Source of the DNA: Algoriphagus sp.
GTDB taxonomy: Bacteria; Bacteroidota; Bacteroidia; Cytophagales; Cyclobacteriaceae
Direction: 5' to 3'
DNA: 49,263 nt
NCBI GenBank assembly: GCA_023653075.1
Contig: JAMNXQ010000011.1
Location: 1 to 49,263, forward strand
Positions 17,154 through 43,628 of this stretch are shown here, piece after piece (the stretch's first letter is position 1; each line of letters opens with the position of its first letter). The notes beneath the pieces were generated by a model that did not search any database, had not been told where the DNA came from, and was given only the letters and a program-made list of their open reading frames with translations. The position numbers and the translations under genes were made by a program.

Positions 17154-17960
17154 TTAAAGCAGGGATTCAAACACAAAATATTCCGTAGGCCAATCTGGGA
17201 AAGTGGGCTTTTGGTCAAATAAGCCAAAAATACTTGAGCCAGAACCCGACATGGCAGCATAGTATGCTCCCGCTTGGTAGAGGCTAGCTTTCAATTCGGC
17301 TAATTTAGGATGGGCAAGAAACACGGAGGGTTCAAAGTCGTTGACCAATTCCTCTTTCCAGCGGTTACGGTCTGCCAAAATGGTTTCTAGATTTGTTTTG
17401 GGAGCCTTTGGAACTACTCCGGCGTAAGCTTCTTTGGTCCCTACATGAATTCCTGGGTAGATCAAGACTAAGTAAGAACCGTGTAAGGATACCGAAGAGG
17501 GTTCAAGAATTTCTCCTCTTCCGCGGATAATTTTGGGTGAATTTTCTATGAAAAACGGGCAATCACTCCCCAATTCTGCTGCGTATTCTTCCAGGAAAAA
17601 ATCGTCCAGGTGCAAGTCAAAAAGATTATTCATCAGCGTCAATGCAAAAGCCCCATCTGCGGAGCCACCACCCAAGCCAGCGCCCATGGGAATATGTTTG
17701 TGCAAGTGGATCTGGAGACTAGGCAAACCATGGTAATCTTTTTTGAGCAGCTTTTCAGCTTTCAAGATCAAATTGTCCTTGGGATCTCCAGGCACGTCCA
17801 AACCGGTTACAGTCCAAGAAGGCTTTTTGTCCAAGATCATTTCCAAGGCGTCACAGAGCGGGATAGGAACCATGCAGGATTCGATTTCATGGTAGCCATC
17901 TTTACGCTTTTGCGTGATGTGAAGTCCGAGGTTGATTTTGGCGTTGGGAAAGGTGATCAT
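17154..17960 (-). CDS. ispE: 4-diphosphocytidyl-2-C-methyl-D-erythritol kinase
   Basis: GHMP kinase of the MEP isoprenoid pathway; phosphorylates CDP-methylerythritol at the 2-hydroxyl. 268 residues from the ATG at 17960; upstream in-frame TTG codons would add only MLKLCP. Motifs: NAKINLGLHITQKRKDGYHEI at the N-terminus (catalytic Lys region), the ATP loop PMGAGLGGGSADGAFAL, SDCPFF, and the C-terminal AMSGSGSSIFGLF. It is monocistronic, between the EamA gene and the ilv leader region, with a -7 element very close to the start. Confidence 0.95.
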   Translation of the reverse strand: MITFPNAKINLGLHITQKRKDGYHEIESCMVPIPLCDALEMILDKKPSWTVTGLDVPGDPKDNLILKAEKLLKKDYHGLPSLQIHLHKHIPMGAGLGGGSADGAFALTLMNNLFDLHLDDFFLEEYAAELGSDCPFFIENSPKIIRGRGEILEPSSVSLHGSYLVLIYPGIHVGTKEAYAGVVPKAPKTNLETILADRNRWKEELVNDFEPSVFLAHPKLAELKASLYQAGAYYAAMSGSGSSIFGLFDQKPTFPDWPTEYFVFESLL

Positions 17961-17975
17961 GGGGCACAATTTCAA

Positions 17976-17983
17976 CAAAAGTA
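17976..17983 (-). promoter_or_regulatory. ispE promoter, -7 element
   Basis: Perfect TACTTTTG on the minus strand, 15 bases before the ispE ATG, which would give a very short leader. No clear TTG at -33. Confidence 0.4.
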
Positions 17984-18231: not shown

Positions 18232-18275
18232 CCAATTTTAAGCGCTGAATAAATGGTTACACGAAGAATTAAATA

Positions 18276-18306
18276 TTGTAAGTCTCGGCCTAGATAATTA
18301 CTATTG
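18276..18306 (+). promoter_or_regulatory. ilv/leu operon promoter
   Basis: TTG at 18276-18278, a 20-base spacer, and TACTATTG at 18299-18306 (one mismatch to TAnnTTTG). Transcription would begin near 18312, giving a leader RNA with about 32 bases before the leader peptide ATG. Position and spacing fit the attenuator downstream. Confidence 0.6.
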
Positions 18307-18344: not shown

Positions 18345-18404
18345 ATGACTTACTCCTTGTTCCTACTCCTGCGATTTAGCATTCTCCTTTCTAATTCCAA
18401 GTGA
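18345..18404 (+). CDS. ilv/leu operon leader peptide
   Basis: Short reading frame encoding MTYSLFLLLRFSILLSNSK, 19 residues. Six codons are Leu (TTG, CTA, CTC, CTG, CTC, CTT) and one is Ile; there is no Val codon. Leu codons form the clusters LFLLL and ILL. The frame ends at TGA (18402-18404), which overlaps the first base pairs of a GAGGCAC segment able to pair with the terminator arm. It lies between the promoter and the terminator of a Leu/Ile/Val operon, as leader peptides of enteric ilv and leu operons do. No Shine-Dalgarno is seen, as usual in this phylum. It is a sensor of charged tRNA-Leu (and perhaps tRNA-Ile), not expected to work as a protein. Confidence 0.85.
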   Translation: MTYSLFLLLRFSILLSNSK

Positions 18405-18448
18405 GGCACAAGACTATAGCGATACTTCTATACTTTGTAAAGTGCCTC
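18403..18448 (+). promoter_or_regulatory. antiterminator of the ilv/leu attenuator
   Basis: GAGGCAC (18403-18409) is the exact complement of GTGCCTC (18442-18448), the left arm of the terminator. A smaller hairpin TATAG/CTATA (18415-18419 with 18428-18432) lies inside and would shorten the loop. The first arm overlaps the leader stop codon, so a ribosome that finishes the leader covers it, whereas a ribosome stalled at the Leu codons leaves it free. Confidence 0.75.
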
Positions 18449-18470
18449 CATCCAAAGAGGCACTTTTTTT
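18439..18470 (+). terminator. attenuator terminator before ilvD
   Basis: AAAGTGCCTC pairs with GAGGCACTTT across the loop CATCCAAA: a 10-bp stem with a run of seven T (18464-18470) overlapping its 3' end. It ends 12 bases before the ilvD start, so it can only be a conditional terminator. Confidence 0.9.
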
Positions 18471-18482
18471 ATTTACGATACC

Positions 18483-20171
18483 ATGGCCCAAAATAAGCTT
18501 AAAAAATACAGTTGGGAAATAAGTGACAACCCAGAGCATCCTGCAGGGATGGCGATGTTGTATGCCACTGGCATGTCTGACAAAAAAATGAAGCAGCCTT
18601 TTGTAGGAATCGCAAGTTGCGGCTACGAAAGTAATCCCTGCAACATGCACCTCAACGACTTTGCTGCGCACATCAAAGCTTCCTCCCAGGAAGAAGAATT
18701 GACGGGATTGATTTTCAATACCATTGGAATCTCTGACGGAACTTCCATGGGCACTCTAGGGATGCGCTATTCCTTGGTTTCCAGAGAAATTATTGCAGAT
18801 TCCATAGAATCCTTTGTGCTTGGACATTCTTTTGATGCCTGCATCGCTGTAGCTGGCTGTGATAAAAATATGCCTGGTGCGGTGATGGGAATGCTTCGCA
18901 TCAATCGCCCTAGTATCATGGTCTATGGGGGCACCATTGCATCGGGCCTCTACAAAGGAGAAAAGCTAAACATTGTCTCAGCATTTGAGGCTTTTGGTAA
19001 AAAAATTCAAGGCACTATTACCCCGGAAGATTACGATGGGGTGATTCGCAATGCCTGCCCGGGAGCTGGAGCCTGTGGAGGAATGTACACAGCCAACACC
19101 ATGTCTTCAGCGATTGAAGCATTGGGTATGTCCTTGCCGTATTCAGCGTCGTATCCAGCCAACTCCCCTGAGAAATTACGGGAATGCCGAGAGGTAAATC
19201 ATTACCTACGCATCTTGCTAGAGATGGACCTGAAGCCCAAAGACATTGTCACTCGAAAAAGTATTGAAAATGCTGTGCGGGTAGCCATCGCCCTTGGAGG
19301 AAGTACCAATGCGGTGCTCCACCTTCTGGCAATCGCTCGTACGGCAGGCGTGAATTTTTCACTTCAAGACTTCAAGGATCTCAATGCCAAAACCCCTATG
19401 GTGGGTGACTTTAAGCCTTCAGGAAAGTTCCTGATGGAAGACTTGCACGAGCAAGGAGGCCTTCCCGCCTTTATGAAGTACTTTTTAGAAAAAGGCTACC
19501 TCCATGGAGATTGCCTTACAGTGACAGGGAAAACCTTGGCGGAAAATTTGGAAAAGGTGGAGGCGCTTGTGCCTTCTAGAGTCAATGTGATCCATCCTGT
19601 AGAATCTCCCATCAAAGACACGGGGCATCTCTGCATCCTGTCTGGAAACCTTGCCCCTGAGGGTGCGGTAGCCAAGATTACAGGCAAGGAAGGAAGGCTA
19701 TTTACTGGGCCTGCCAAGGTGTATGACTCCGAGTTGGATGCCAATAATGCCATCCGTGACCACCAGGTCAAGGCGGGTGATGTGGTAGTCATTCGCAACG
19801 TGGGTCCAAAAGGCGCGCCTGGAATGCCAGAAATGCTCAAGCCTACCTCCATGATCATCGGTGCTGGCTTGGGTTCAGATGTAGCCTTGATTACTGACGG
19901 TCGTTTTTCAGGAGGTACCCACGGATTTGTGGTGGGTCACGTGACACCTGAAGCCTGGTGTGGAGGCCCTATTGGACTTCTCCGAGATGGAGACCTCATT
20001 ACCATCGATACCGACAGTCAAAGCCTTCAGGTAGCGGTAACCGCAGAGGAGTTTGCTACACGCAAAACTACCTGGTCACCCAAGCCCCTTGTAGGATTGC
20101 AAGGCACGCTCAAAAAATACAATCAACTCGTAGCCACCGCCTCTGAAGGTTGTGTCACAGATAACTTCTGA
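18483..20171 (+). CDS. ilvD: dihydroxy-acid dehydratase
   Basis: Dehydrates 2,3-dihydroxy-isovalerate and 2,3-dihydroxy-3-methylvalerate to the 2-keto acids before Val/Leu and Ile. 562 residues, normal length. Iron-sulfur ligands are in NPCN (Cys53), AGCDKNMPG and [16 protein letters not shown]; the C-terminal [21 protein letters not shown] is the family signature. It is the first gene of the nine-gene operon, directly after the attenuator terminator. The ATG sits in ACCATGG with no Shine-Dalgarno. Confidence 0.97.
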
Positions 20172-20175
20172 TTCC

Positions 20176-21867
20176 ATGGAAACAAAAATGAGAGGTGCTG
20201 ACATTGTCGTTCGATCGCTGATTGCCGAGCAAGCTGAAATAATTTTCGGCTATCCCGGGGGTGCTATCATGCCGGTGTATGATGCTCTATACGATTACCA
20301 CGACCAAATCAAACATGTACTTACCCGTCACGAACAAGGTGCCATCCATGCCGCCCAAGGCTATGCGCGCATTTCGGGTAAGGTAGGAGTTTGTCTTGCG
20401 ACTTCAGGTCCAGGGGCCACTAACCTGATTACAGGATTGGCGGATGCCCAGATCGACAGTACCCCTTTGGTTTGCATCACGGGTCAGGTAGCCGCACATC
20501 TCTTAGGAACGGATGCGTTTCAAGAAACGGATGTGATGGGTATTTCTATGCCTGCCACCAAGTGGAACATCCAAGTAAGGCATGCAAAAGATATTGCGCC
20601 TGCCATTGCTAAAGCATTTTTTATCGCACGTTCTGGAAGACCGGGTGCTGTGCTGATCGACATTACCAAAAATGCGCAAGTGGAACTAGAAGAGTTCAAT
20701 TACAGCCCTTGCCAAGAGTTTAGATCCTATAAAATCCATCACCCAGTAGACCTTCCAGCCATACAAGAAGCGGCAGAGCTAATCAATAGTGCAAGCCGAC
20801 CTTATTTGCTGTTTGGTCAAGGAGTGATTTTGGGAAAAGCGGAGGCGGAGCTGAAGTTCTTCTTAGACAAATCTGGAATCCCTGCCGCATCCACCCTTTT
20901 GGGTTCTGGAGCCCTTTCCCAGGAGCATCCTAACTATGTAGGGAAATTGGGAATGCATGGCAATTATGCCCCTAATCTACTCACTAACCAGTGCGATGTG
21001 TTGATTGCGGTCGGCATGCGTTTTGATGACCGAGTGACGGGAGATTTATCCCGCTATGCCAAGCAAGCCAAAGTGATCCACTTGGAATTGGACCCTTCCG
21101 AAATCAACAAAAATGTGAAAGCGGATGTCGCAGTCCTTGGAGATTGCAAGGAAAGCTTAGCCACATTGACCGAAGCGATTACGGGCAAAAAACACGAGGC
21201 TTGGATGGCCAAATTCCGAGCCTTGGAACAGCAGGAAAAGGAAGCTGTCGTGCAACACGACCTGACCCCAACCAAAGCAGGTTTAACCATGGGTGAGGTC
21301 ATCCACCAAATCAACCAGTACAAGGCAGACGATGCCGTATTGGTGACCGATGTGGGGCAGCACCAGATGATTGCCTGGCGGTATTTCGATTACAAGAAAA
21401 CGCGAACTCAGGTAACTTCAGGTGGATTGGGAACCATGGGATTTGCCCTTCCAGCGGCGCTTGGCGCTCAGCTACACGACTATTCGCGACAAGTGATTTG
21501 CGTGGTGGGCGATGGAGGAATTCAGATGACTATCCAAGAGCTGGGTACCATCATGCAGACCAAGGCTCCTGTCAAAATTGTCTTGCTGAATAACAATTAC
21601 CTCGGTATGGTGCGCCAATGGCAGCAGATGTTTTTTGACAAGCGCTACTCTTTTACCGAACTAGATAATCCAGATTTTATCAAGCTTGCTGATGCGTACG
21701 GAATCAAAGCTCAGAAAGTCGATGAACGTTCCAGTCTCCAAGAAGCAATCGAAGACATGCTGATTCATGATGGTCCGTTTTTCCTAGAAGTGGTGGTTGA
21801 AAAAGAGGACAATGTATTCCCCATGATTGCCACGGGATGCTCCGTAGAAGAAGTTCGACTCCATTAA
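20176..21867 (+). CDS. ilvB: acetolactate synthase, large (catalytic) subunit
   Basis: Thiamine diphosphate enzyme joining pyruvate to pyruvate or 2-ketobutyrate, the first common step of Val/Leu and Ile synthesis. 563 residues from the ATG at 20176, four bases after the ilvD stop; an in-frame GTG at 20152 overlaps ilvD and is less likely. Motifs: GYPGGAIMPVYDAL with HEQGAIHAAQGYAR (catalytic Glu), the FAD region (GMRFDDRVTGD), and the thiamine diphosphate motif VGDGGIQMTIQEL...NNNYLGMVRQWQ. It works with IlvN, encoded next. Confidence 0.97.
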   Translation: METKMRGADIVVRSLIAEQAEIIFGYPGGAIMPVYDALYDYHDQIKHVLTRHEQGAIHAAQGYARISGKVGVCLATSGPGATNLITGLADAQIDSTPLVCITGQVAAHLLGTDAFQETDVMGISMPATKWNIQVRHAKDIAPAIAKAFFIARSGRPGAVLIDITKNAQVELEEFNYSPCQEFRSYKIHHPVDLPAIQEAAELINSASRPYLLFGQGVILGKAEAELKFFLDKSGIPAASTLLGSGALSQEHPNYVGKLGMHGNYAPNLLTNQCDVLIAVGMRFDDRVTGDLSRYAKQAKVIHLELDPSEINKNVKADVAVLGDCKESLATLTEAITGKKHEAWMAKFRALEQQEKEAVVQHDLTPTKAGLTMGEVIHQINQYKADDAVLVTDVGQHQMIAWRYFDYKKTRTQVTSGGLGTMGFALPAALGAQLHDYSRQVICVVGDGGIQMTIQELGTIMQTKAPVKIVLLNNNYLGMVRQWQQMFFDKRYSFTELDNPDFIKLADAYGIKAQKVDERSSLQEAIEDMLIHDGPFFLEVVVEKEDNVFPMIATGCSVEEVRLH

Positions 21868-21877
21868 TCTCTCGCCT

Positions 21878-22378
21878 ATGAAACGCTATACCATCTTTGT
21901 CATCACCGAAAATTTCATTGGGATTCTCAACCGAATCACCATCATTTTTACCCGAAGGGGAATCAATATCGATGCGCTTACGGCCTCTGAAAGCCGGATC
22001 CCAGGAGTGCACCGCATCACCATTGAAGTGACGGTCACCGAGGAGACTGTCATCCAGCTCGTCAACCAAATCGAAAAGATTATCGATGTGATTAAGGCCT
22101 TCCACCACGAGGATTCGGGGGTGGTCTACCAAGAGTTGGCCTTGTATAAAATTCCTGTATCACGACTAGATGGAGGCTTGGAAAAAATTATCCGTGATCA
22201 CCATGCCAAAATCATTGCAGCAGAGCCAGACTTTGTCGTGCTGGAATTGACCGGACACAAGGAAAAGACGCGAGAGCTGCTGGAACTATTGAAAGACTAT
22301 GGCATACTTGAATTTGCGCGATCCGGTAGGGTGGCTGTCGCCAAGCGCATGCTCACCATAGACTCATTTGTCAACTAA
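21878..22378 (+). CDS. ilvN: acetolactate synthase, small (regulatory) subunit
   Basis: Regulatory partner of IlvB that confers valine feedback inhibition and raises activity. 166 residues: an N-terminal ACT domain (residues 2-80, FVITENFIGILNRITIIFTRRGINIDALTAS) and a C-terminal ALS small-subunit domain (KIIAAEPDFVVLELTGHKEKTRELLELL). The first domain has the N-x-x-G-x-L-x-R pattern of valine-binding ACT domains. It starts 10 bases after ilvB. The name ilvH would be equally fair. Confidence 0.94.
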   Translation: MKRYTIFVITENFIGILNRITIIFTRRGINIDALTASESRIPGVHRITIEVTVTEETVIQLVNQIEKIIDVIKAFHHEDSGVVYQELALYKIPVSRLDGGLEKIIRDHHAKIIAAEPDFVVLELTGHKEKTRELLELLKDYGILEFARSGRVAVAKRMLTIDSFVN

Positions 22379-22414: not shown

Positions 22415-23458
22415 ATGAAATTGAAATTTGGAAACGTTGAAGAAAACGTAGTAACCCGAGAAGAGTTCCCCTTAGAAAAAGCTAGAGAGGTCCTAAAAAA
22501 TGAAGTCATCGCAGTGATTGGATACGGGGTGCAAGGCCCAGGCCAAGCGCTCAACCTTCGTGACAACGGCTTCAACGTAATTGTGGGTCAGCGAAGCGGC
22601 TCCAAGACCTGGGACAAGGCCATCGCCGATGGATGGGTACCAGGAGAAACTCTTTTTGAAATTGAGGAAGCTTGCTCTTGTGGAACTATCCTCCAATTTT
22701 TGCTTTCAGATGCAGGGCAAATCGCCTTGTGGCCTACGTTGAAAAAACACTTGACCCCTGGGAAAGCCCTTTATTTTTCCCATGGATTTGGAATTACTTA
22801 CAAGGAAAAAACAGGAATCATTCCTCCAGCAGATGTGGATGTGATCTTGGTTGCTCCTAAAGGTTCCGGTACTTCCTTGAGAAGAATGTTTGTGGAAGGC
22901 AGAGGACTTAATTCTTCCTACGCCATTTACCAAGATGGAACAGGAAAAGCGAAAGACCGCGTAGTGGCTTTGGGTATCGGTGTCGGTTCTGGCTACCTTT
23001 TTGAAACAGACTTCTACCGTGAGGTAACTTCTGATTTGACTGGAGAGCGTGGTACCTTGATGGGTGCCATCCAAGGAATTTTCGCAGCTCAGTACGAGGT
23101 GCTTAGAGCCAATGGACATACTCCTTCTGAAGCATTCAACGAGACAGTCGAAGAATTGACCCAGTCTTTGATGCCCCTAGTGGCAGAAAATGGAATGGAT
23201 TGGATGTATGCCAACTGCTCTACTACTGCACAGCGCGGTGCTTTGGACTGGTGGAAGCCTTTCCGTGACGCGACCAAGCCGGTATTTGAAGCATTGTATC
23301 AGTCTGTAAAATCTGGAACAGAAGCGCAAAAATCCATTGACTCCAACTCCAAGGCGGATTATAGAGAAAAGTTAGAAGCTGAACTTGCTCAACTTCGTGA
23401 ATCTGAAATGTGGCAGGCGGGCGCCGTCGTGCGTAAGTTGAGACCAGAAAATAATTAA
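22415..23458 (+). CDS. ilvC: ketol-acid reductoisomerase
   Basis: Isomerises and reduces acetolactate and acetohydroxybutyrate. 347 residues, the short class I form. The Rossmann motif GYGVQGPGQALNLRDNG starts at residue 36, and the cofactor loop GQRSGSKTWDKA (Arg60, Ser61, Ser63) looks suited to the NADPH phosphate. Metal and catalytic residues lie in the C-terminal knotted domain (DLTGERGTLMGAIQGIFAAQYE; NCSTTAQRGALDWWKPF). It is fourth in the operon with a 36-base gap after ilvN. Confidence 0.96.
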   Translation: MKLKFGNVEENVVTREEFPLEKAREVLKNEVIAVIGYGVQGPGQALNLRDNGFNVIVGQRSGSKTWDKAIADGWVPGETLFEIEEACSCGTILQFLLSDAGQIALWPTLKKHLTPGKALYFSHGFGITYKEKTGIIPPADVDVILVAPKGSGTSLRRMFVEGRGLNSSYAIYQDGTGKAKDRVVALGIGVGSGYLFETDFYREVTSDLTGERGTLMGAIQGIFAAQYEVLRANGHTPSEAFNETVEELTQSLMPLVAENGMDWMYANCSTTAQRGALDWWKPFRDATKPVFEALYQSVKSGTEAQKSIDSNSKADYREKLEAELAQLRESEMWQAGAVVRKLRPENN

Positions 23459-23479: not shown

Positions 23480-24988
23480 ATGAGTGAAAAGCTATGGATA
23501 TTCGATACCACGCTTCGAGATGGAGAACAAGTGCCTGGATGTCAACTCAATACCCAAGAAAAAATCATTGTTGCTAAGGCGCTGGAAGAACTTGGGGTAG
23601 ACATCATTGAGGCCGGATTTCCGATTTCTAGCCCTGGAGATTTTAATTCAGTCATTGAAATATCGAAAGCTGTTACTAATCCTATTATCTGTGCGCTTTC
23701 GCGTGCTGTAGAAAAGGACATTGAGGTAGCGGGTGCAGCACTTCAATACGCCAAAAAAGGGCGTATTCACACGGGTATCGGCGTTTCACCCTACCACATT
23801 CAGTACAAGCTCCGCTCCACTCCCGAAGACATCATTCGTCGTGGGGTAGCGGCGGTTAAGTTTGCCAAGCGATTCGTGGAAGATGTGGAGTTTTATGCGG
23901 AAGATGCAGGTCGAGCGGAAGCAGATTTTCTCTGCAAAATCATCGAAGAGGTGATCAAGGCAGGAGCTACAGTGGTGAATATTCCCGATACTACGGGGTA
24001 TTGCTTGCCTGAACAGTACGGAGCCATCATTTCTAGCCTAAAAAATCGGGTACCTAATATTGATCAGGCCATCATCGCTACCCATTGTCACAACGACCTA
24101 GGCATGGCAACCGCCAATACCGTGGCCGGCGTGCAGCAAGGTGCCAGACAAGTCGAGGTGACCATCAATGGAATCGGAGAACGTGCCGGCAACACCTCCA
24201 TGGAAGAGGTGGTGATGGCCATCAAGTGCCACCAATCCATTCCGGTTTACACGGATATCGTCACTCCAAAAATCTACCACACCAGCCGCCTGGTATCTAA
24301 ATTGATGAACATGCCGGTGCAGCCCAACAAGGCCATTGTGGGAAGAAATGCTTTTGCGCACTCCTCAGGAATCCATCAGGATGGGGTTTTGAAGCATCGC
24401 GAAAATTACGAAATCATCGACCCCAAAGAAGTGGGTGTTTCCGAGTCCACCATTGTACTCACCGCACGTTCTGGAAGAGCTGCACTCAAGCATCACCTGG
24501 ATGCCTTGGGAGTGGAACTCGAAGGAGAGGAATTACGTGAAGTGTATGAGGCGTTTCTAATCTTAGCTGATTCCAAGCGGGATGTGGGGAGAAAAGATTT
24601 ATTGGAGCTAGTGGGTAAATACATTGAGGATTCCAATTTCATTGAATTAGGTGATGTCAAGTACACCTCCAATGGAGCTATCCAAGCTGAGGTACACCTT
24701 AAAATCGGAAATGAACACTATTCAGCGATTTCTACGGGTGTAGGACCAGTGGACGCAGTATTGAAAGCCATTGAATCACTCGTACAGCCTCAGGTAGAAC
24801 TTGAGGAGTTCCTCATTCAGGCCATGACTCAGGGAAGTGACGATGTCGCCAAGGTGCACATGCGTCTCATCAAGTCTGACAAGCCCTACTATGGCTTTGC
24901 CTCCAATCAAGACATCGTCCTTGCTTCCGCGCAAGCATTTGTCGATGCACTCAACAAAATTCCAGTCAAAGAATATGCGACTGCCTAA
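23480..24988 (+). CDS. leuA: 2-isopropylmalate synthase
   Basis: Condenses acetyl-CoA with 2-ketoisovalerate, the first leucine-specific step. 502 residues. The TIM barrel begins [13 protein letters not shown] (residues 8-20), with metal-binding [13 protein letters not shown] near residue 200 and [31 protein letters not shown] marks the linker. The C-terminal 100 residues form the LeuA allosteric domain for leucine feedback. It is close to the classic bacterial LeuA, in contrast with the second LeuA-family gene at 27091. Confidence 0.95.
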
Positions 24989-24990
24989 CT

Positions 24991-26397
24991 ATGGAAAAGA
25001 ACACCTTATTTGATAAAATCTGGGATGCACACGTAGTCAAATCCGTGCCCGCTGGCCCTGATGTATTTTTCATCGACAAGCACTTCATTCACGAAGTGAC
25101 TTCGCCCGTGGCTTTCTTGAATTTGGAGAAAAGAGGGATAGGAGTAAAGTACCCACACCGAACCATTGCCACTCCTGATCACAACGTGCCTACGGTAGAT
25201 CAAGACCAGACAATCAAGGATAAGCTTTCCCGAATGCAAGTAGAAAAGCTTCGCGAGAATTGTGCGAAGTACGACATTGAATTGCATGACTTGGGCTCTG
25301 CACACCATGGTATCGTCCACGTGATCGGCCCTGAGTTGGGGGTAACTCAACCCGGAATGACCATTGTTTGTGGGGATTCACATACTTCCACGCACGGTGC
25401 TTTTGGAGCCATTGCTTTTGGTATCGGTACCTCCGAAGTGGAGATGGTATTGGCTACCCAATGCATCATGCAGTCCAAGCCCAAGAAGATGCGCATTTCT
25501 GTGGAAGGCGCGCTAGGAAAAGGGGTGACTTCCAAAGACATTATTCTCTACATCATCTCCAAAATCTCAGCAGCAGGTGCCACTGGCTATTTTGTAGAAT
25601 ATGCAGGTTCGACCATCCGAAGCCTATCCATGGAAGCTCGCATGACGATTTGCAACATGTCCATCGAAATGGGTGCTCGTGGAGGATTAATTGCTCCCGA
25701 TCAAACTACCTACGATTTTCTAAAAGGAAAGCAGTATGCTCCCGCAGGGGAAGACTGGGAAAAAGCGGTGGCCTATTGGAACACCTTGCGTACCGACGAT
25801 GGAGCAGTATTTGATGAAGAGTTGACTTTTGATGCTGCGGATATTGAACCGATGATTACCTATGGTACCAATCCAGGCATGGGCATCAAGGTAGTAGATA
25901 ACATCCCATCCACCGAGGGCATGGAAGGCTCCAACAAGACCTCTTACCTCAAAGCCTTAGACTACATGGGATTTGCACCAGGGGAACCAATCCTTGGAAA
26001 ATCGGTAGACTACGTATTTGTAGGTTCCTGTACCAACGGGCGTATCGAGGATATCCGTGCAGTAGCTCAATTTGTGAAAGGGCATAAAAAGGCAGATTCC
26101 ATTACTGCTTGGATTGTACCAGGATCTCGGGAAGTGGAAAAACAAGCCCAAGCCGAAGGATTGGTTGCTATTTTGGAAGAAGCAGGATTTGAACTTCGTC
26201 AACCAGGTTGCTCGGCTTGCCTTGCCATGAACGACGACAAGATTCCTGCTGGTAAATACGCTGTTTCTACTTCCAACAGAAACTTTGAAGGTCGGCAGGG
26301 ACCGGGTGCACGTACCTTACTCGCTTCTCCACTGACAGTGGCTGCTGTAGCCATTACGGGGAAAATCACCGATCCACGGGAAGTATTTAAAGCTTGA
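24991..26397 (+). CDS. leuC: 3-isopropylmalate dehydratase, large subunit
   Basis: Aconitase-family subunit carrying the [4Fe-4S] cluster; isomerises 2- to 3-isopropylmalate with LeuD. 468 residues, normal length. Cluster cysteines lie in [15 protein letters not shown] and in [36 protein letters not shown] is the family signature. It may also process citramalate for the isoleucine branch, as known for several organisms. Two bases separate it from leuA. Confidence 0.96.
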
Positions 26398-26487: not shown

Positions 26488-27078
26488 ATGGCTTACGATA
26501 AATTTACCATCCTACAGAGTACAGTAGTACCCCTTTCGACAGAGAATGTGGATACAGACCAAATCATCCCCGCTCGCTTTTTAAAGGCAACAGAAAGAGA
26601 AGGCTTTGGAGACAACCTGTTTCGCGATTGGCGCTACGACTCTGCTGGAACGCCAAAGACAGATTTTGTGCTCAATGATTCCACTTACAGCGGAAAAATT
26701 CTTGTTGCGGGAAAAAACTTTGGATGCGGATCGAGCCGAGAACATGCCGTTTGGGCCTTGTATGACTATGGCTTTCGCTGTGTAGTATCCAGCTTTTTTG
26801 CAGATATCTTTAAAAACAACTGCCTCAATATCGGCGTACTGCCTGTGACGGTGACGCCTGCGTTTGCAGATAAACTTTTTGCTGCCATAGCTGCAGATCC
26901 GCTAACCGAAGTGGAAGTAAACTTACCAAAACAAACGATCACCTTACTTGCTACGGGGGATGCTGAATCCTTTGATATCAACGAATACAAGAAGGACAAC
27001 ATGCAGCATGGGTTCGATGACATCGATTACCTAATCAACATGGCTACAGAAATCGAAGGCTTTGAAGCCAAGCGATAA
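26488..27078 (+). CDS. leuD: 3-isopropylmalate dehydratase, small subunit
   Basis: Swivel-domain partner of LeuC, 196 residues. Motifs: TENVDTDQIIPARFLK near the N-terminus and AGKNFGCGSSREHAVWALYDYGF, which carries substrate-binding residues; ADIFKNNCLNIGVLPV follows. It is separated from leuC by a 90-base gap containing a palindromic repeat, the largest gap inside the operon. Confidence 0.95.
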   Translation: MAYDKFTILQSTVVPLSTENVDTDQIIPARFLKATEREGFGDNLFRDWRYDSAGTPKTDFVLNDSTYSGKILVAGKNFGCGSSREHAVWALYDYGFRCVVSSFFADIFKNNCLNIGVLPVTVTPAFADKLFAAIAADPLTEVEVNLPKQTITLLATGDAESFDINEYKKDNMQHGFDDIDYLINMATEIEGFEAKR

Positions 27079-27090
27079 ACTGAGTTAAGC

Positions 27091-28629
27091 ATGGAGGCAC
27101 GAAGATTGGAACTGATGGATACAACCTTGAGGGATGGCGAACAGACCTCAGGCGTATCTTTTTTGCCCTCCGAAAAGCTTCACCTCGCCAAGGCACTCTT
27201 GGAAGAATTAAAAGTAGACCGCATCGAAGTAGCTTCTGCTCGCGTGTCAGCGGGGGAACTAGAGGGAGTGCAGCGCATCACCCAATGGGCAGCTCAAAAA
27301 GGGTATTTGGACAAAGTAGAAGTCCTGGGATTTGTGGACACCCCCATTTCTGTGGATTGGATTGTGGAGGCCGGTGCCCAGGTGCTCAATTTACTAACCA
27401 AAGGTTCCCTCAATCACCTTGTTCATCAATTAAAGAAAACGCCCGAGGAACATTTTTCCGAAATCCGCCAGTGCATTGCCTATGCTCTGGATCAAGGGCT
27501 TCAGGTAAATGTCTACTTGGAAGACTGGTCCAATGGGATGCGTAGCTCTCGGGACTATACGCTAAGCCTCATCGAAATGCTTGCGCAGCAACCCATTCAG
27601 CGAGTGATGCTTCCAGATACGTTGGGCATCCTTTCTCCTGCAGAGGTAAGCGACTTTTTTGGGGAGGTAATCTCCAAATTCCCTTCTTTACGATTCGATT
27701 TCCATGGACACAACGATTACGATTTGGCAGTAGCCAACGTGCTTGAGGCAGTGCTTCAGGGGGTGTCTGGTATTCATAGCACCATCAATGGGCTAGGTGA
27801 ACGGGCGGGAAATGCTCCTTTGGAATCCGTCGTAGCCGTGATTAAGGATTTTACGGATTTGGAAATCGGCGTTCAGGAACAAAAGATCTTTCGGGTATCC
27901 AAGTTGGTGGAACAATTTTCCGGGCAATACATTCCTGCCAATAAGCCCGTGGTAGGAGAAAATGTATTTACCCAAACTGCCGGCATTCATGCCGATGGGG
28001 ATCAAAAAAAGAGTTTGTACTTCAATCAATTGCTGCCCGAGCGATTTGGTAGAGAGCGAAAATATGCCCTAGGCAAAACCTCAGGGAAGGCCAATATTTC
28101 AAAAAATCTGGAGGCCCTGGGAATTTCTTTGGAGCCGGATGAATTGGCTCGCGTCACCCAGCGAATCATCGAATTGGGAGACAAAAAGGAACGAGTGACT
28201 ACGGAGGACCTGCCCTACATCATTTCCGATGTCCTCCAAAACAATTCATTTACCAAAAACATCAGCATAGATGGGTACCACATGACCCAATCCAAAGGCC
28301 TAAAGCCTTCGGTTCAATTGCGACTCAAGGTGTACGACAGCTACCACGATGCCACTGCTACGGGTGATGGACAGTACGATTCGTTTATGAAGGCAGTGAG
28401 CCTGATTTATGCTTCTTTGCAAAAAGACCTACCCAAATTAGTTGATTACCACGTGACCATTCCTCCAGGGGGAAAAACCGACGCTTTTGTGGAGACGGTT
28501 ATCACCTGGGAATATGGAGGTCGATTCAAAACCAAAGGATTGGATCCAGACCAAACCGTAGCTGCCATGATGGCTACAGAAAAAATGTTGAATATCATGG
28601 ATAAGTACCCAAAGGAAATTCATCCGTAA
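27091..28629 (+). CDS. second LeuA-family synthase, probable (R)-citramalate synthase
   Basis: 512-residue enzyme of the isopropylmalate/homocitrate/citramalate synthase family. It shares [13 protein letters not shown] (residues 9-21), DFHGHNDYDLAVAN (metal-binding His), NGLGERAGNAPLESVVAVI and a C-terminal LeuA regulatory domain (LRLKVYDSYHDATATGDGQYDSFMKAV), but is clearly different from LeuA upstream. Position between leuD and leuB, in an operon with ilvBNCD but no ilvA, suggests citramalate synthase, which would feed 2-ketobutyrate to isoleucine from pyruvate and acetyl-CoA. A second isopropylmalate synthase or homocitrate synthase remains possible. Substrate is inferred from context only. 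Confidence 0.75.
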   Translation: MEARRLELMDTTLRDGEQTSGVSFLPSEKLHLAKALLEELKVDRIEVASARVSAGELEGVQRITQWAAQKGYLDKVEVLGFVDTPISVDWIVEAGAQVLNLLTKGSLNHLVHQLKKTPEEHFSEIRQCIAYALDQGLQVNVYLEDWSNGMRSSRDYTLSLIEMLAQQPIQRVMLPDTLGILSPAEVSDFFGEVISKFPSLRFDFHGHNDYDLAVANVLEAVLQGVSGIHSTINGLGERAGNAPLESVVAVIKDFTDLEIGVQEQKIFRVSKLVEQFSGQYIPANKPVVGENVFTQTAGIHADGDQKKSLYFNQLLPERFGRERKYALGKTSGKANISKNLEALGISLEPDELARVTQRIIELGDKKERVTTEDLPYIISDVLQNNSFTKNISIDGYHMTQSKGLKPSVQLRLKVYDSYHDATATGDGQYDSFMKAVSLIYASLQKDLPKLVDYHVTIPPGGKTDAFVETVITWEYGGRFKTKGLDPDQTVAAMMATEKMLNIMDKYPKEIHP

Positions 28630-28639
28630 TTTTATACCT

Positions 28640-29707
28640 ATGAAAATGAAAATAGCACTCCTGTCTGGCGACGGCATTGGGCCGGAGGTAATTGCTCAGG
28701 CAGTAAAAGTGGTTGAAGCCATTGGAAAGAAATTTGGCCACCACATCACCTTCGAAAAAGGTTTGGTAGGGGCTTGTGCCATAGATGCAACAGGGGATCC
28801 CTATCCGGATGCTACCCATGAAATATGTGTGGGAGCTGATGCGGTTCTTTTCGGGGCTATTGGTGATCCTAAATACGACAACGATCCCAAAGCAAAGGTT
28901 CGTCCAGAGCAGGGCTTATTGCGCATGCGTCAGAAGTTAGGACTCTTTGCCAATGTTCGCCCCACCTTTACCTTTCCTTCCTTAGTACACAAATCTCCCC
29001 TCAAGTTGGACCGAGTGGATGGGGTAGATCTAGTTTTTTTTAGGGAACTGACCGGAGGCATCTATTTCGGGGAGCCTAGAGGCAGAAACGAACAAGGAAC
29101 CAAAGCTTTTGATACCAACGTCTACAGCAAGGAGGAGATTGTGCGTTTGGCTCGTATGGGTTTTGAAGCTGCGCAAAAGCGGAGAAAACTACTGACCTGC
29201 GTGGACAAGGCAAACGTAATGGCTACTTCCAGATTGTGGAGAGAAACCGTCCAAGAATTGGCACCTGAGTATCCAGATGTAAAAGTAGAATATGAATTTG
29301 TGGATGCCGTAGCCATGCGATTAATCCAATGGCCCAAGGCCTACGATGTGTTGATCACCGAGAATCTATTTGGAGATATTTTGACTGACGAGGCCTCTGT
29401 GATCTCTGGTTCGATGGGCTTGATGCCTTCGGCCTCCTTGGGAGCCAAGGTGAAGCTATTCGAACCAATCCACGGTTCTTATCCTCAAGCTGCTGGCAAG
29501 GACATTGCCAATCCGCTGGGGACCATTCTATCTGCTTCCATGATGTTCGATTATGCATTTGGATTGGAAGCTGAAGCCAAATTGATCAGCGATGTAGTCA
29601 ACCAATCGCTAGCTGAAGGAATCGTCACCGAAGATATCGCTGAAGGAGGGAAGGCCTACAAAACCTCCGAAATAGGAGACTGGCTGGCAGCTCGAATTTT
29701 GAGTTAA
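28640..29707 (+). CDS. leuB: 3-isopropylmalate dehydrogenase
   Basis: Oxidises 3-isopropylmalate with NAD and decarboxylates it to 2-ketoisocaproate; may also act on methylmalate in the citramalate route. 355 residues. Motifs: LSGDGIGPEVIAQAVKV, RMRQKLGLFANVRP (substrate Arg residues), CVDKANVMATSRLWR (catalytic Lys), and LFEPIHGSYPQAAGKDIANP near the NAD site. Last gene of the operon, followed at once by a strong hairpin. Confidence 0.96.
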   Translation: MKMKIALLSGDGIGPEVIAQAVKVVEAIGKKFGHHITFEKGLVGACAIDATGDPYPDATHEICVGADAVLFGAIGDPKYDNDPKAKVRPEQGLLRMRQKLGLFANVRPTFTFPSLVHKSPLKLDRVDGVDLVFFRELTGGIYFGEPRGRNEQGTKAFDTNVYSKEEIVRLARMGFEAAQKRRKLLTCVDKANVMATSRLWRETVQELAPEYPDVKVEYEFVDAVAMRLIQWPKAYDVLITENLFGDILTDEASVISGSMGLMPSASLGAKVKLFEPIHGSYPQAAGKDIANPLGTILSASMMFDYAFGLEAEAKLISDVVNQSLAEGIVTEDIAEGGKAYKTSEIGDWLAARILS

Positions 29708-41513: not shown

Positions 41514-43559
41514 ATGAAAAAATTTGCATTAGGAATACTAGTTATGCTACTGGCCACGGGGATCACCTATGCCCAGGTAGATCGGAGTAAATTGCCGGCT
41601 TCTGGCCCAGCTCCTGAGATCAAGATCGGGGAGGCGGAAACCTTCACACTTGCCAATGGATTGAAAGTGTTTGTTGTGAAAAACACCAAACTCCCACGTG
41701 TATCCTTCACCCTGGTATTCGAGAGAGATCCGATCCTAGAAGGAGACAAGGCAGGTCTTACCACCTTCATCGGGGACATGATGATGGGTGGTACAAAAAA
41801 TAGAACCAAAGATCAGCTGGATCAAGAAATTGACTTCATTGGAGCAAGCCTTAGTGCTTCTGCAACTTCAGTTTCTGTTTCCTCCCTCAAAAAGCACCAA
41901 GGAAAAGTGTTGGAATTGATGGCGGATGTGCTCTTTAATCCTGTATTTCCTCAGCCGGAATTGGATAAGTTGAAAAAGCAGTCCTTAACGGGTCTTGCAA
42001 CTACCAAAGACGATCCACAGGCGATTTCTTCGCGACTTTCTCGCGCAGTGCTCTATGGAAAAAATCACCCCTATGGAGAGTCTCAAACGGAGCAAACTAC
42101 CAAGAACATCACCTTAGATGATGTGAAGGCCTACTACCAAACCTATTTCAAACCAAATATTGCTTATTTGGCAATTGTGGGAGATATCGATAAGGCAGAG
42201 GCCCAAAAGGTGGTAAACCAGTATTTTGGTGCGTGGAAGAAAGGAGAGGTACCCACCTACAAGTATCCAATGCCGGTACGCGCTGCCAAGCAGGCCGTAG
42301 CCCTTGTGGATCGCAGTTCTTCTGTACAATCCGTCATCGACGTGACGCAGCCTGTAGCCATGAAAATTGGAGACGCCGATTACATCTCCAGTAGATTGTT
42401 GAACCAGATTTTGGGTGGAGGTTCTGCCTCACGCTTGTTTATGAACCTACGTGAGGACAAAGGCTTTACCTATGGTGCCTATTCTTCCATTGATGCAGAT
42501 AAATTGGTGGGAACGATTTCCGCTTCCGCGTCTGTGCGTAGCGAAGTGACCGATTCTGCGGTATACGAGTTTGTGTATGAGATCAAAAATCTCGTGGAGA
42601 AGGGTGTGACCCAAGAAGAATTAGACAAAGCCAAAGCAGAGCTTGCAGGTAGCTTTGGTCGCTCCCTAGAGCAGCCTGGAACGGTGGCTAACTTTGCTTT
42701 GAATACAGCGCGATACAATCTCCCTAAGGATTACTATGCAACCTATTTGCAAAAGTTGAACTCCTATACCGTGGCAGACATCAATGCTACGGCTAAGCGA
42801 TTGATCGAGCCGGATAAGTTTATCATCACTACAGTAGGGAATGGAGCTGAGATTAAAGAAAAGCTTGCTCAATTTGGTGAAGTAATCGAATACGACATCA
42901 TGGGAGAGCCAGCCAAGCAGTTGGTAGCAGATGCAGATATGACTGCTGAAAAAGTCCTTGAAAATTACCTGAATGCTATTGGAGGTGCTACCCAGGTGGC
43001 GGCTATTCAAACTGCCAAAATCAGCATGGATGCCAACGTGATGGGTACCGCTTTGACCATTGCCTTTGTGTATGATTCTCAAAATGGCCGTTATGGACAG
43101 AAGCTTTCTATTGGAGGAAATGTGATGCAAAAGACCACCCTTGCCAATGGCAAAGGATCCATGTCTGTGCAGGGAAATTCTATGGAAATGACTCCTGCGC
43201 AATTGGCTGAAGCACAACTGAACTCCTACCTTTTCCCGGAGGCGGTATACAAAGCCAATGGCTACACGGTAACACTCGATGGATTGAAGGATGTGGACGG
43301 CAAGCCTGCTTACAAGGTGGTGATTGCAACTGCCTCTGGAGCCAAGTTGACCAACTACTATGCGCAAGATTCTGGTTTGAAGATCAAGTACGAAAACCCT
43401 GCCTCAGGAGATACCTACTATGGAGATTATCAGCCGATGAATGGGGTATTGCTCCCCATGTCTTGGACCATCAAATCCCCACAGATTCCTGTGCCTTTGG
43501 AAGCCAAAGTAACTTCTTTGCAAGTGAATGTGCCGGTGACTGACGGAGACATTAACTAA
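41514..43559 (+). CDS. M16 family protein lacking HxxEH, with C-terminal extension
   Basis: 681 residues with signal peptide (MKKFALGILVMLLATGITYAQ). Residues 30-455 form two M16 domains, but the zinc motif is lost: the aligned stretch reads LTTFIGDMMMGGT, with no His. Residues from about 475 on (VLENYLNAIGGATQVAAIQTAKI...GLKIKYENPASGDTYYGDYQPMNGVLLPMSWTI) form a LolA/LolB-like or outer-membrane-lipoprotein-sorting-like beta domain. In M16B pairs the inactive partner helps bind substrate; so this is likely the non-catalytic subunit of the upstream peptidase. The C-terminal domain function is inference. Confidence 0.88.
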   Translation: MKKFALGILVMLLATGITYAQVDRSKLPASGPAPEIKIGEAETFTLANGLKVFVVKNTKLPRVSFTLVFERDPILEGDKAGLTTFIGDMMMGGTKNRTKDQLDQEIDFIGASLSASATSVSVSSLKKHQGKVLELMADVLFNPVFPQPELDKLKKQSLTGLATTKDDPQAISSRLSRAVLYGKNHPYGESQTEQTTKNITLDDVKAYYQTYFKPNIAYLAIVGDIDKAEAQKVVNQYFGAWKKGEVPTYKYPMPVRAAKQAVALVDRSSSVQSVIDVTQPVAMKIGDADYISSRLLNQILGGGSASRLFMNLREDKGFTYGAYSSIDADKLVGTISASASVRSEVTDSAVYEFVYEIKNLVEKGVTQEELDKAKAELAGSFGRSLEQPGTVANFALNTARYNLPKDYYATYLQKLNSYTVADINATAKRLIEPDKFIITTVGNGAEIKEKLAQFGEVIEYDIMGEPAKQLVADADMTAEKVLENYLNAIGGATQVAAIQTAKISMDANVMGTALTIAFVYDSQNGRYGQKLSIGGNVMQKTTLANGKGSMSVQGNSMEMTPAQLAEAQLNSYLFPEAVYKANGYTVTLDGLKDVDGKPAYKVVIATASGAKLTNYYAQDSGLKIKYENPASGDTYYGDYQPMNGVLLPMSWTIKSPQIPVPLEAKVTSLQVNVPVTDGDIN

Positions 43560-43565
43560 AACGAA

Positions 43566-43589
43566 AAAAGGAGGGCTTGCCCTCCTTTT
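43566..43589. terminator. hairpin terminator between convergent genes, first
   Basis: AAAAGGAGGG-CTTG-CCCTCCTTTT, a 10-bp stem with A-run before and T-run after. It can serve the M16 unit on the plus strand and the M61 gene on the minus strand, where six T follow the stem. Confidence 0.85.
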
Positions 43590-43599
43590 AATTAACTAG

Positions 43600-43628
43600 G
43601 GGTTGGTAGAAATACCAACCCTTTTTTT
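43600..43628 (+). terminator. hairpin terminator between convergent genes, second
   Basis: GGGTTGGTA-GAAA-TACCAACCC followed by seven T; a GNRA-type loop. It is a back-up plus-strand terminator 40 bases after the M16 pair, ending at the stop codon of the M61 gene. Confidence 0.85.

What the first reader, a model, noticed from the sequence alone, without database searches (positions are those of the whole stretch)
18345..18470. Complete ribosome-mediated attenuator in front of a nine-gene ilv/leu operon
A candidate promoter is followed by a 19-codon leader peptide with six Leu codons and one Ile codon, then GAGGCAC (18403-18409) that can pair with GTGCCTC (18442-18448), the left arm of a 10-bp terminator with a T-run. 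The antiterminator arm overlaps the leader stop codon, so a ribosome finishing the leader would mask it, and one stalled at Leu codons would free it. Two features stand out: the switch sits before ilvD and would govern Leu, Val and Ile genes together although the leader has no Val codon, and it works without a visible Shine-Dalgarno in a phylum where attenuation is far less described than in enteric bacteria.
Basis: partly seen in the sequence, partly recalled or inferred. Interest (0 to 1): 0.85.

Follow-up and report, generated by a model that had tools for sequence, protein, structure and literature searches.

The report
Leucine-sensing attenuator before ilv-leu operon
Just in front of a cluster of branched-chain amino acid genes in a likely Algoriphagus bacterium lies a tiny leucine-rich reading frame whose stop codon overlaps one arm of a predicted RNA switch, which would let ribosomes stalled for lack of leucine turn the genes on; the same layout recurs in dozens of related genomes, so it is probably real, although this kind of switch is already known from other bacteria.

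Summary
In 75 distinct sequences of one family (window included), 75 have a short ATG frame, 53% Leu/Ile/Val overall, ending at arm A. One arm-B position changes together with both partners in nine sequences. Folding with a placed ribosome predicts that stalls at Leu or Ile codons free the antiterminator and that the stop codon blocks it. Best reading: a classical ribosome-mediated attenuator, new as a family, without Rfam match, of a known kind. Two standout features shrink: 66 of 75 leaders carry Val codons, so this mostly Val-less clade looks derived, and lacking a Shine-Dalgarno is normal in this phylum (PMC6847099, abstract start). Attenuation clues in Flavobacterium are in print (PMC9723704). 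Against: two-sided change of the antiterminator rests on one base pair, the pause hairpin is unsupported here, and no transcription was measured.

The parts
18267..18306 (+). predicted promoter: AATTAAATATTGTAAGT box (18267-18283) and TACTATTG (18299-18306, TAnn[TA]TTG type)
   Evidence: TAnn[TA]TTG 25-75 nt before the leader ATG in 75 of 75 sequences; 200 mononucleotide shuffles: mean 6.4, maximum 14. The 17-mer occurs once in the (incomplete) genome at up to 2 mismatches. That TAnnTTTG is the phylum's promoter element is recalled.
18345..18404 (+). leader peptide frame MTYSLFLLLRFSILLSNSK, UGA stop
   Evidence: ATG frame ending at arm A in 75 of 75 sequences (window included), Leu+Ile+Val 53% against 26% and 17% in the other two frames
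18403..18409 (+). arm A (antiterminator 5' arm), overlaps the leader stop codon
18439..18448 (+). arm B, shared by antiterminator (18442-18448) and terminator
18439..18470 (+). intrinsic terminator hairpin (arms 18439-18448 and 18457-18466) and T-run 18464-18470
18483..20171 (+). ilvD, dihydroxy-acid dehydratase
20152..21867 (+). ilvB, acetolactate synthase large subunit
21878..22378 (+). ilvN, acetolactate synthase small subunit
22415..23458 (+). ilvC, ketol-acid reductoisomerase
23480..24988 (+). leuA, 2-isopropylmalate synthase
24991..26397 (+). leuC, 3-isopropylmalate dehydratase large subunit
26488..27078 (+). leuD, 3-isopropylmalate dehydratase small subunit
27091..28629 (+). citramalate synthase-like (cimA-like)
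   Evidence: best family NF042433, 678.4 bits but below its cut-off of 950
28640..29707 (+). leuB, 3-isopropylmalate dehydrogenase

Best explanation
The region is most likely a ribosome-mediated transcription attenuator that would tie expression of the nine ilv-leu genes to the supply of charged leucine tRNA (with isoleucine as a minor input). Shown directly: the frame, its stop codon overlapping arm A, arm A and the terminator's right arm carrying the same GAGGCAC so that either can pair with arm B, the T-run, the genes, and recurrence of the layout across a family. Inferred: when Leu is plentiful the ribosome runs to the stop, covers arm A, arm B pairs with arm C and transcription ends near 18470; when Leu-tRNA is short the ribosome waits at one of six Leu codons (or the Ile codon), arm A is free, pairs with arm B, and RNA polymerase reads into ilvD. 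Folding puts the switch point just after codon 15, the last Leu (between codons 16 and 18, by the ribosome edge assumed). Untested: the actual read-through, and what happens without translation.
For: Exact anatomy. Stall model on RNA made to 18450: at all three assumed ribosome edges P(antiterminator) is 0.97 or more for a stall at each of the six Leu codons and the Ile codon, and 0.00 at the stop; over 38 sequences (window included) 316 of 326 Val/Leu/Ile codons leave it free (P above 0.5) and 38 of 38 stops block it. Frame in 75 of 75 sequences, Leu/Ile/Val 53%; pN/pS 0.44, pooled over non-independent close pairs and single-base codon differences. Terminator pairs in 95.5% and antiterminator pairs in 94.5% of cells, against at most 60.5% and 47.6% when slid 1-3 columns; covariation score above all 500 shuffles and above every slide for both. 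One arm-B column with its partners A,B,C: G,C,G in 65, A,U,A in 9, A,U,G in 1; these ten come from four genera. ilvD lies directly downstream in 51 of 51 loci checked (50 distinct places, window included). 51 of 196 family genomes have a strong match (54.9 bits or more, 21 genera, own genome included). 13 of 63 other ilvD regions have an Ile/Leu/Val-rich frame plus terminator, against 0 of 630 shuffles and 1 of 63 reverse complements.
Against: No RNA or reporter data. In the first 38 sequences the antiterminator shows no two-sided change and no measure exceeds its shuffles. In the 75 the two-sided change sits at a single pair and may be one event; the number of pairs changed on both sides (1; 439 of 500 shuffles reach it) and of further pair types (7; 500 of 500) do not exceed controls, and for the terminator one slide gives more two-sided cells (16 against 12). 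Full-length equilibrium folding always prefers the terminator (P 0.96), so the switch rests on timing. Without a ribosome the RNA to 18450 forms the antiterminator (P 0.99; above 0.5 in 35 of 38), so untranslated RNA might read through. The 1:2 pause hairpin is weak in the window (z 0.5). 145 of 196 family genomes gave no strong match (strict filters); whether they have ilvD was not checked. 49 of 63 other ilvD loci showed no leader-terminator unit.
Confidence: 0.9

Rival explanations
1. The hairpin is only a plain terminator in the intergenic gap, and the leader frame is a chance ORF.
For: A T-run hairpin lies in a 504-nt intergenic gap; short frames are common by chance.
Against: The upstream gene 17154-17978 is on the minus strand, so there is no upstream + strand gene next to it to terminate. 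The frame and its stop position are kept in 75 of 75 sequences, and arm A, useless to a plain terminator, changes together with the terminator arms in nine.
Confidence: 0.03
2. A tRNA- or ligand-binding riboswitch (T-box or other) controls the terminator.
For: A T-box controls ilv-leu in Bacillus subtilis (passage in PMC5794164).
Against: No Rfam match in the window at gathering score, and none in L001 or L026 at E up to 0.1. The leader frame, with conserved coding content, fills most of the space between the predicted promoter and arm A.
Confidence: 0.02
3. The leader peptide works by nascent-chain stalling or translational coupling rather than by Leu-codon supply.
For: The stretch LSFIILI is well conserved in sequence in most of the genus, not only in codon class.
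Against: Val, Leu and Ile often replace one another between relatives while the class is kept; ilvD starts 78 nt after the leader stop, with the terminator between them.
Confidence: 0.05

Closest known systems
Leucine-rich attenuator of the Staphylococcus aureus ilvD-led ilv-leu operon (PMC5794164, passages read)
   Same: Ile/Leu-rich leader peptide and terminator in front of ilvD of a combined ilv-leu operon; judged not to be a T-box.
   Different: The S. aureus leader has a putative ribosome binding site, three Ile and five Leu codons, and a proposed antiterminator that leaves the terminator stem intact and pairs with its U-tract; here arm A competes for the stem itself and overlaps the leader stop codon.
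Enteric leu, ilvGMEDA and trp attenuators (recalled)
   Same: Leader peptide, terminator and antiterminator in alternative pairing, switched by ribosome position.
   Different: No convincing strand 1:2 pause hairpin in the window; the Leu/Ile/Val set varies between relatives.
Leader-peptide attenuation clues in Flavobacterium psychrophilum (PMC9723704, passages and one section read)
   Same: Same phylum; leader peptides upstream of amino acid biosynthesis operons.
   Different: The section names pheA and hisG among conserved 5' elements; ilvD does not occur in the main text. Its supplementary table could not be read here.
Leader-like small ORFs in Bacteroides thetaiotaomicron 5' UTRs (PMC7366714, passages read)
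   Same: Same phylum; short ORFs in 5' UTRs said to recall attenuating leader peptides.
   Different: The example given is before a hypothetical protein gene, not an amino acid operon.
Corynebacterium ilvBNC attenuator (PMC11857589 and PMC10272879, search listings with abstract start only)
   Same: uORF-based control of ilv genes.
   Different: Different phylum and operon.

Membership tests
Ribosome-mediated (leader-peptide) transcription attenuator | short frame rich in codons of the regulated pathway's products | tested here: met
   6 Leu and 1 Ile of 19 codons; 53% Leu/Ile/Val over 75 sequences
Ribosome-mediated (leader-peptide) transcription attenuator | intrinsic terminator between leader and first gene | tested here: met
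   by sequence and folding:
Ribosome-mediated (leader-peptide) transcription attenuator | mutually exclusive antiterminator sharing the terminator's left arm | tested here: met
   by sequence and folding; covariation support is limited to one pair
Ribosome-mediated (leader-peptide) transcription attenuator | ribosome at the stop codon masks the antiterminator arm, ribosome at regulatory codons does not | tested here: met
   by folding only:
Ribosome-mediated (leader-peptide) transcription attenuator | strand 1:2 pause hairpin (classical four-strand form) | tested here: inconclusive
   window z 0.5; mean over 38 sequences -1.48, several between -2 and -3.5
Ribosome-mediated (leader-peptide) transcription attenuator | leader is translated, and read-through rises when the cognate aminoacyl-tRNA is short | not testable with these tools
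   needs RNA, ribosome-profiling or reporter measurement
T-box, other riboswitch or leader families of Rfam 15 | match to the family covariance model | tested here: not met
   0 matches to 4227 families at gathering score in the window

The most novel reading that the evidence does not exclude
Across Bacteroidota one fast-evolving attenuator design, with the leader stop codon built into the antiterminator arm, guards the branched-chain amino acid genes, and its amino acid sense is retuned by codon replacement: Val+Leu+Ile in most of this family, mainly Leu in the genome-reduced clade of the window, Val+Leu with one Ile or none in its sister pair, Ile/Val in Flavobacteriaceae, where two such switches are sometimes placed in series.
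Probability: 0.4. Interest if true: 0.62.

Novelty: new member of a known kind. Interest (0 to 1): 0.45.

Why it matters
It turns a single-sequence guess into 75 distinct aligned elements that could become an Rfam entry, names a likely leucine-responsive control point for a branched-chain amino acid operon in aquatic Bacteroidota, and offers a natural series in which the sensed amino acids appear to change along a tree while the RNA switch stays the same.

Tried and rejected
The sigma-70 scan gave two matches (3.3 expected in shuffles), none just upstream of the leader; the phylum-type motif was used instead. The first leader script stopped with an error part-way and was corrected; counts come. 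In one search the loci on the minus strand were read in the wrong orientation and showed no terminator; corrected from then on. Covariation on the first 38 sequences gave nothing for the antiterminator, hence the wider set. Alignment A1 left out L004 (leader cut by the contig end) and six duplicates out of 45 loci. A2 added 37 of 51 further loci, 14 being core duplicates; one strong hit (G179) was not fetched. The idea that loss of Ile codons goes with loss of threonine deaminase was dropped: 0 of 36 genus genomes pass the ilvA_1Cterm cut-off while 36 of 36 match below it, so it does not separate the clade; other ilvA models were not searched. The scan of the his region found no T-run terminator after the His leader. 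No shuffle control was run for paired units with the settings. Lopatovskaya et al. 2010, seen only as a reference in PMC4833913, could not be read and may already list Bacteroidetes attenuators.

Full report
What is there. The window reads as the finding says: ATG at 18345, nineteen codons MTYSLFLLLRFSILLSNSK, UGA 18402-18404, GAGGCAC at 18403-18409, and AAAGTGCCTC...GAGGCACTTT followed by T's (terminator scan). ilvD begins at 18483, 16 nt after the hairpin. NCBIfam names the genes ilvD, ilvB, ilvN, ilvC, leuA, leuC, leuD, a citramalate synthase-like gene (678.4 bits, below that model's cut-off of 950) and leuB. They lie on one strand with gaps of -20 to 90 nt, so one operon is likely, not shown. 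The window belongs to a 2.18-Mb genome, 67% complete; the best named match of its ilvD is an uncultured Algoriphagus, 98%.

Chance. One of 2000 dinucleotide shuffles of the 504-nt intergenic region gave a comparable Leu/Ile/Val-rich unit. On both strands of the window the same script found three units of any composition: this one (Leu/Ile/Val 0.37) and two overlapping ones within 43441-43623 (0.30 and 0.13).

Relatives. ilvD was sought in 58 related genomes (49 with a match) and in GTDB contigs (best 80 of 587 loci kept). Of the 45 loci L001-L045 (window included, some genomes held twice) the script found terminator, arm A and frame in 43; in L004 the leader is cut by the contig end, and L044 shows the layout in the alignment and the later scan. 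A covariance model of 38 distinct sequences matched 61 of 196 family genomes at E 0.001 or better, of which 51 are strong (54.9 bits or more; 21 genera; the next match has 44.4 bits; strict filters). In 148 genomes of the order the best outside the family were E 2.3e-4 and 34.5 bits. I fetched 50 of the 51 strong places; ilvD lies directly downstream in all (51 loci, one place held twice). In the 75 distinct sequences aligned (window included, 37 of them found by the model built on the other 38) each has an ATG frame of 15-23 codons ending within 10 nt upstream of, or at, arm A; stops are UGA 49, UAA 20, UAG 6; Leu+Ile+Val make 53% of residues against 26% and 17% in the other frames, which are interrupted in 64 and 53 of 75; 66 of 75 contain Val and 65 contain Val, Leu and Ile; pN/pS over pooled, non-independent close pairs is 0.44.

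Alternative pairing. On A2 the terminator keeps 95.5% of pair cells and the antiterminator 94.5%; sliding the partner by 1-3 columns gives at most 60.5% and 47.6%, and the covariation scores exceed all 500 shuffles and all slides. Not all measures do: for the antiterminator only one pair has a two-sided change (439 of 500 shuffles reach that) and 7 further pair types (500 of 500), and one slide of the terminator has more two-sided cells (16 against 12). On A1 alone the antiterminator had no two-sided change. The informative column is arm-B column 144: with its partners in A and C it reads G,C,G in 65 sequences, A,U,A in 9 and the intermediate A,U,G in 1. These ten come from four genera. Column 143 has two sequences with U-A in the terminator and G-U in the antiterminator. 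Joint change of three segments is what two competing helices through one arm predict; it may stem from one or few events.

Ribosome positions. With bases up to 11, 13 or 15 beyond the A-site codon's first base blocked, and RNA made to 18450, P(antiterminator) is 0.97 or more at each Leu and Ile codon, falls over codons 16-18 and is 0.00 at the stop. With the edge at 13, 316 of 326 Val/Leu/Ile codons of 38 sequences leave it free and 38 of 38 stops block it. Against this: once arm C is made, equilibrium favours the terminator at every position, so timing must decide; and with no ribosome the antiterminator forms in 35 of 38, so the state without translation is unsettled. A pause hairpin between leader codons and arm A appears in the full fold but is no better than codon-shuffled leaders in the window (z 0.5; mean -1.48 over 38).

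Promoter. A TAnn[TA]TTG element lies 25-75 nt before the leader ATG in 75 of 75 sequences (200 mononucleotide shuffles: mean 6.4, maximum 14), and an AATTAAATATTGTAAGT-like box lies just upstream of it in most, judged by eye. The 17-mer occurs once in the held genome. That this is the Bacteroidetes promoter form is recalled.

Amino acid sense. The common leader in the genus is of the type VV-LLSFIILI. On an IlvD tree of 40 sequences the window's clade is nested inside Val-bearing Algoriphagus; 8 of its 10 complete leaders have no Val and 2 have one, and its sister pair L012/L013 keeps Val and Leu with no or one Ile. Clade and pair together have support 0.999; their genomes are 2.2-2.8 Mb (67-91% complete), against 3.3-6.3 Mb for the other genus members searched. 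One leader outside the genus, L044, also lacks Val. The window's Leu bias thus looks derived.

Wider picture. Of 63 other ilvD loci with enough upstream DNA (two of 65 were too short), 13 have an Ile/Leu/Val-rich frame followed by a terminator within 500 nt, against 1 of 63 reverse complements and 0 of 630 shuffles; with 700 nt and looser settings, without a shuffle control, it is 14 of 63, six with two units in series. Their arms differ from those here, and in L063, L069, L078, L099 and L104 arm A again begins at the leader stop. The same genome has a His-rich frame before hisG and a Trp-rich frame (WWW) before a trpE-like gene.

Prior work. Leader-peptide attenuation of an ilvD-led operon is proposed in S. 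aureus with supporting mutants (PMC5794164, passages); strong clues in F. psychrophilum are printed (PMC9723704, section read), and leader-like ORFs are mentioned in B. thetaiotaomicron (PMC7366714, passages); tandem attenuators with two leader ORFs are known for mgtCBR (PMC3641672, search listing). Searches joining attenuation or leader peptides with Bacteroidetes, Bacteroidota, Flavobacterium or Algoriphagus (lists capped at 15-20 of up to 170 papers) showed no paper on this element, but most subscription journals are missing and a 2010 comparative study could not be read. Verdict: a real, conserved attenuator, probably new as a family, of a known kind.

Noticed in passing
L122 (G000 contig 17), upstream of hisG; also L113, L114, L116-L121, L123: Conserved His-rich leader ending LHHFHHSS or similar before hisG, followed not by a T-run terminator but by a conserved block GGTG..GCYGATGAYAGGGATTYGGC..CACC that folds as a nested hairpin in an alignment of ten. 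Rfam at E up to 0.1 gave L122 only a sub-threshold microRNA-family match further upstream and nothing in L113 or L116.
   Followed up: partly
L124 1300-1440 (G000 contig 61), upstream of a trpE-like gene: Frame MKTIANNYWWWHSNTFLGKAQKAVA followed by a terminator-like hairpin with a T-run, read by eye: a likely trp attenuator.
   Followed up: no
L055, L078, L082, L097, L103, L104, upstream of ilvD: Two Ile/Val-rich leader-plus-terminator units in series before ilvD in five Flavobacteriaceae (family of some recalled) and one Ignavibacteriae MAG, with different hairpin sequences in the two units.
   Followed up: partly
18267-18283: AATTAAATATTGTAAGT is largely kept in the family at this promoter and occurs once in the held genome; it may be more than a -33 box, for example an operator.
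   Followed up: partly
27091-28629: Citramalate synthase-like gene inside the cluster, while none of 36 genus genomes passed the ilvA_1Cterm cut-off (all 36 match below it): isoleucine may be made through citramalate.
   Followed up: no
43441-43623: Two overlapping frame-plus-hairpin units pass the mechanical scan without strong amino acid bias; probably chance.
   Followed up: no
L097 7092-7200: Match to Rfam Flavo-1 RNA (46.7 bits, gathering 42), far from ilvD's start.
   Followed up: no
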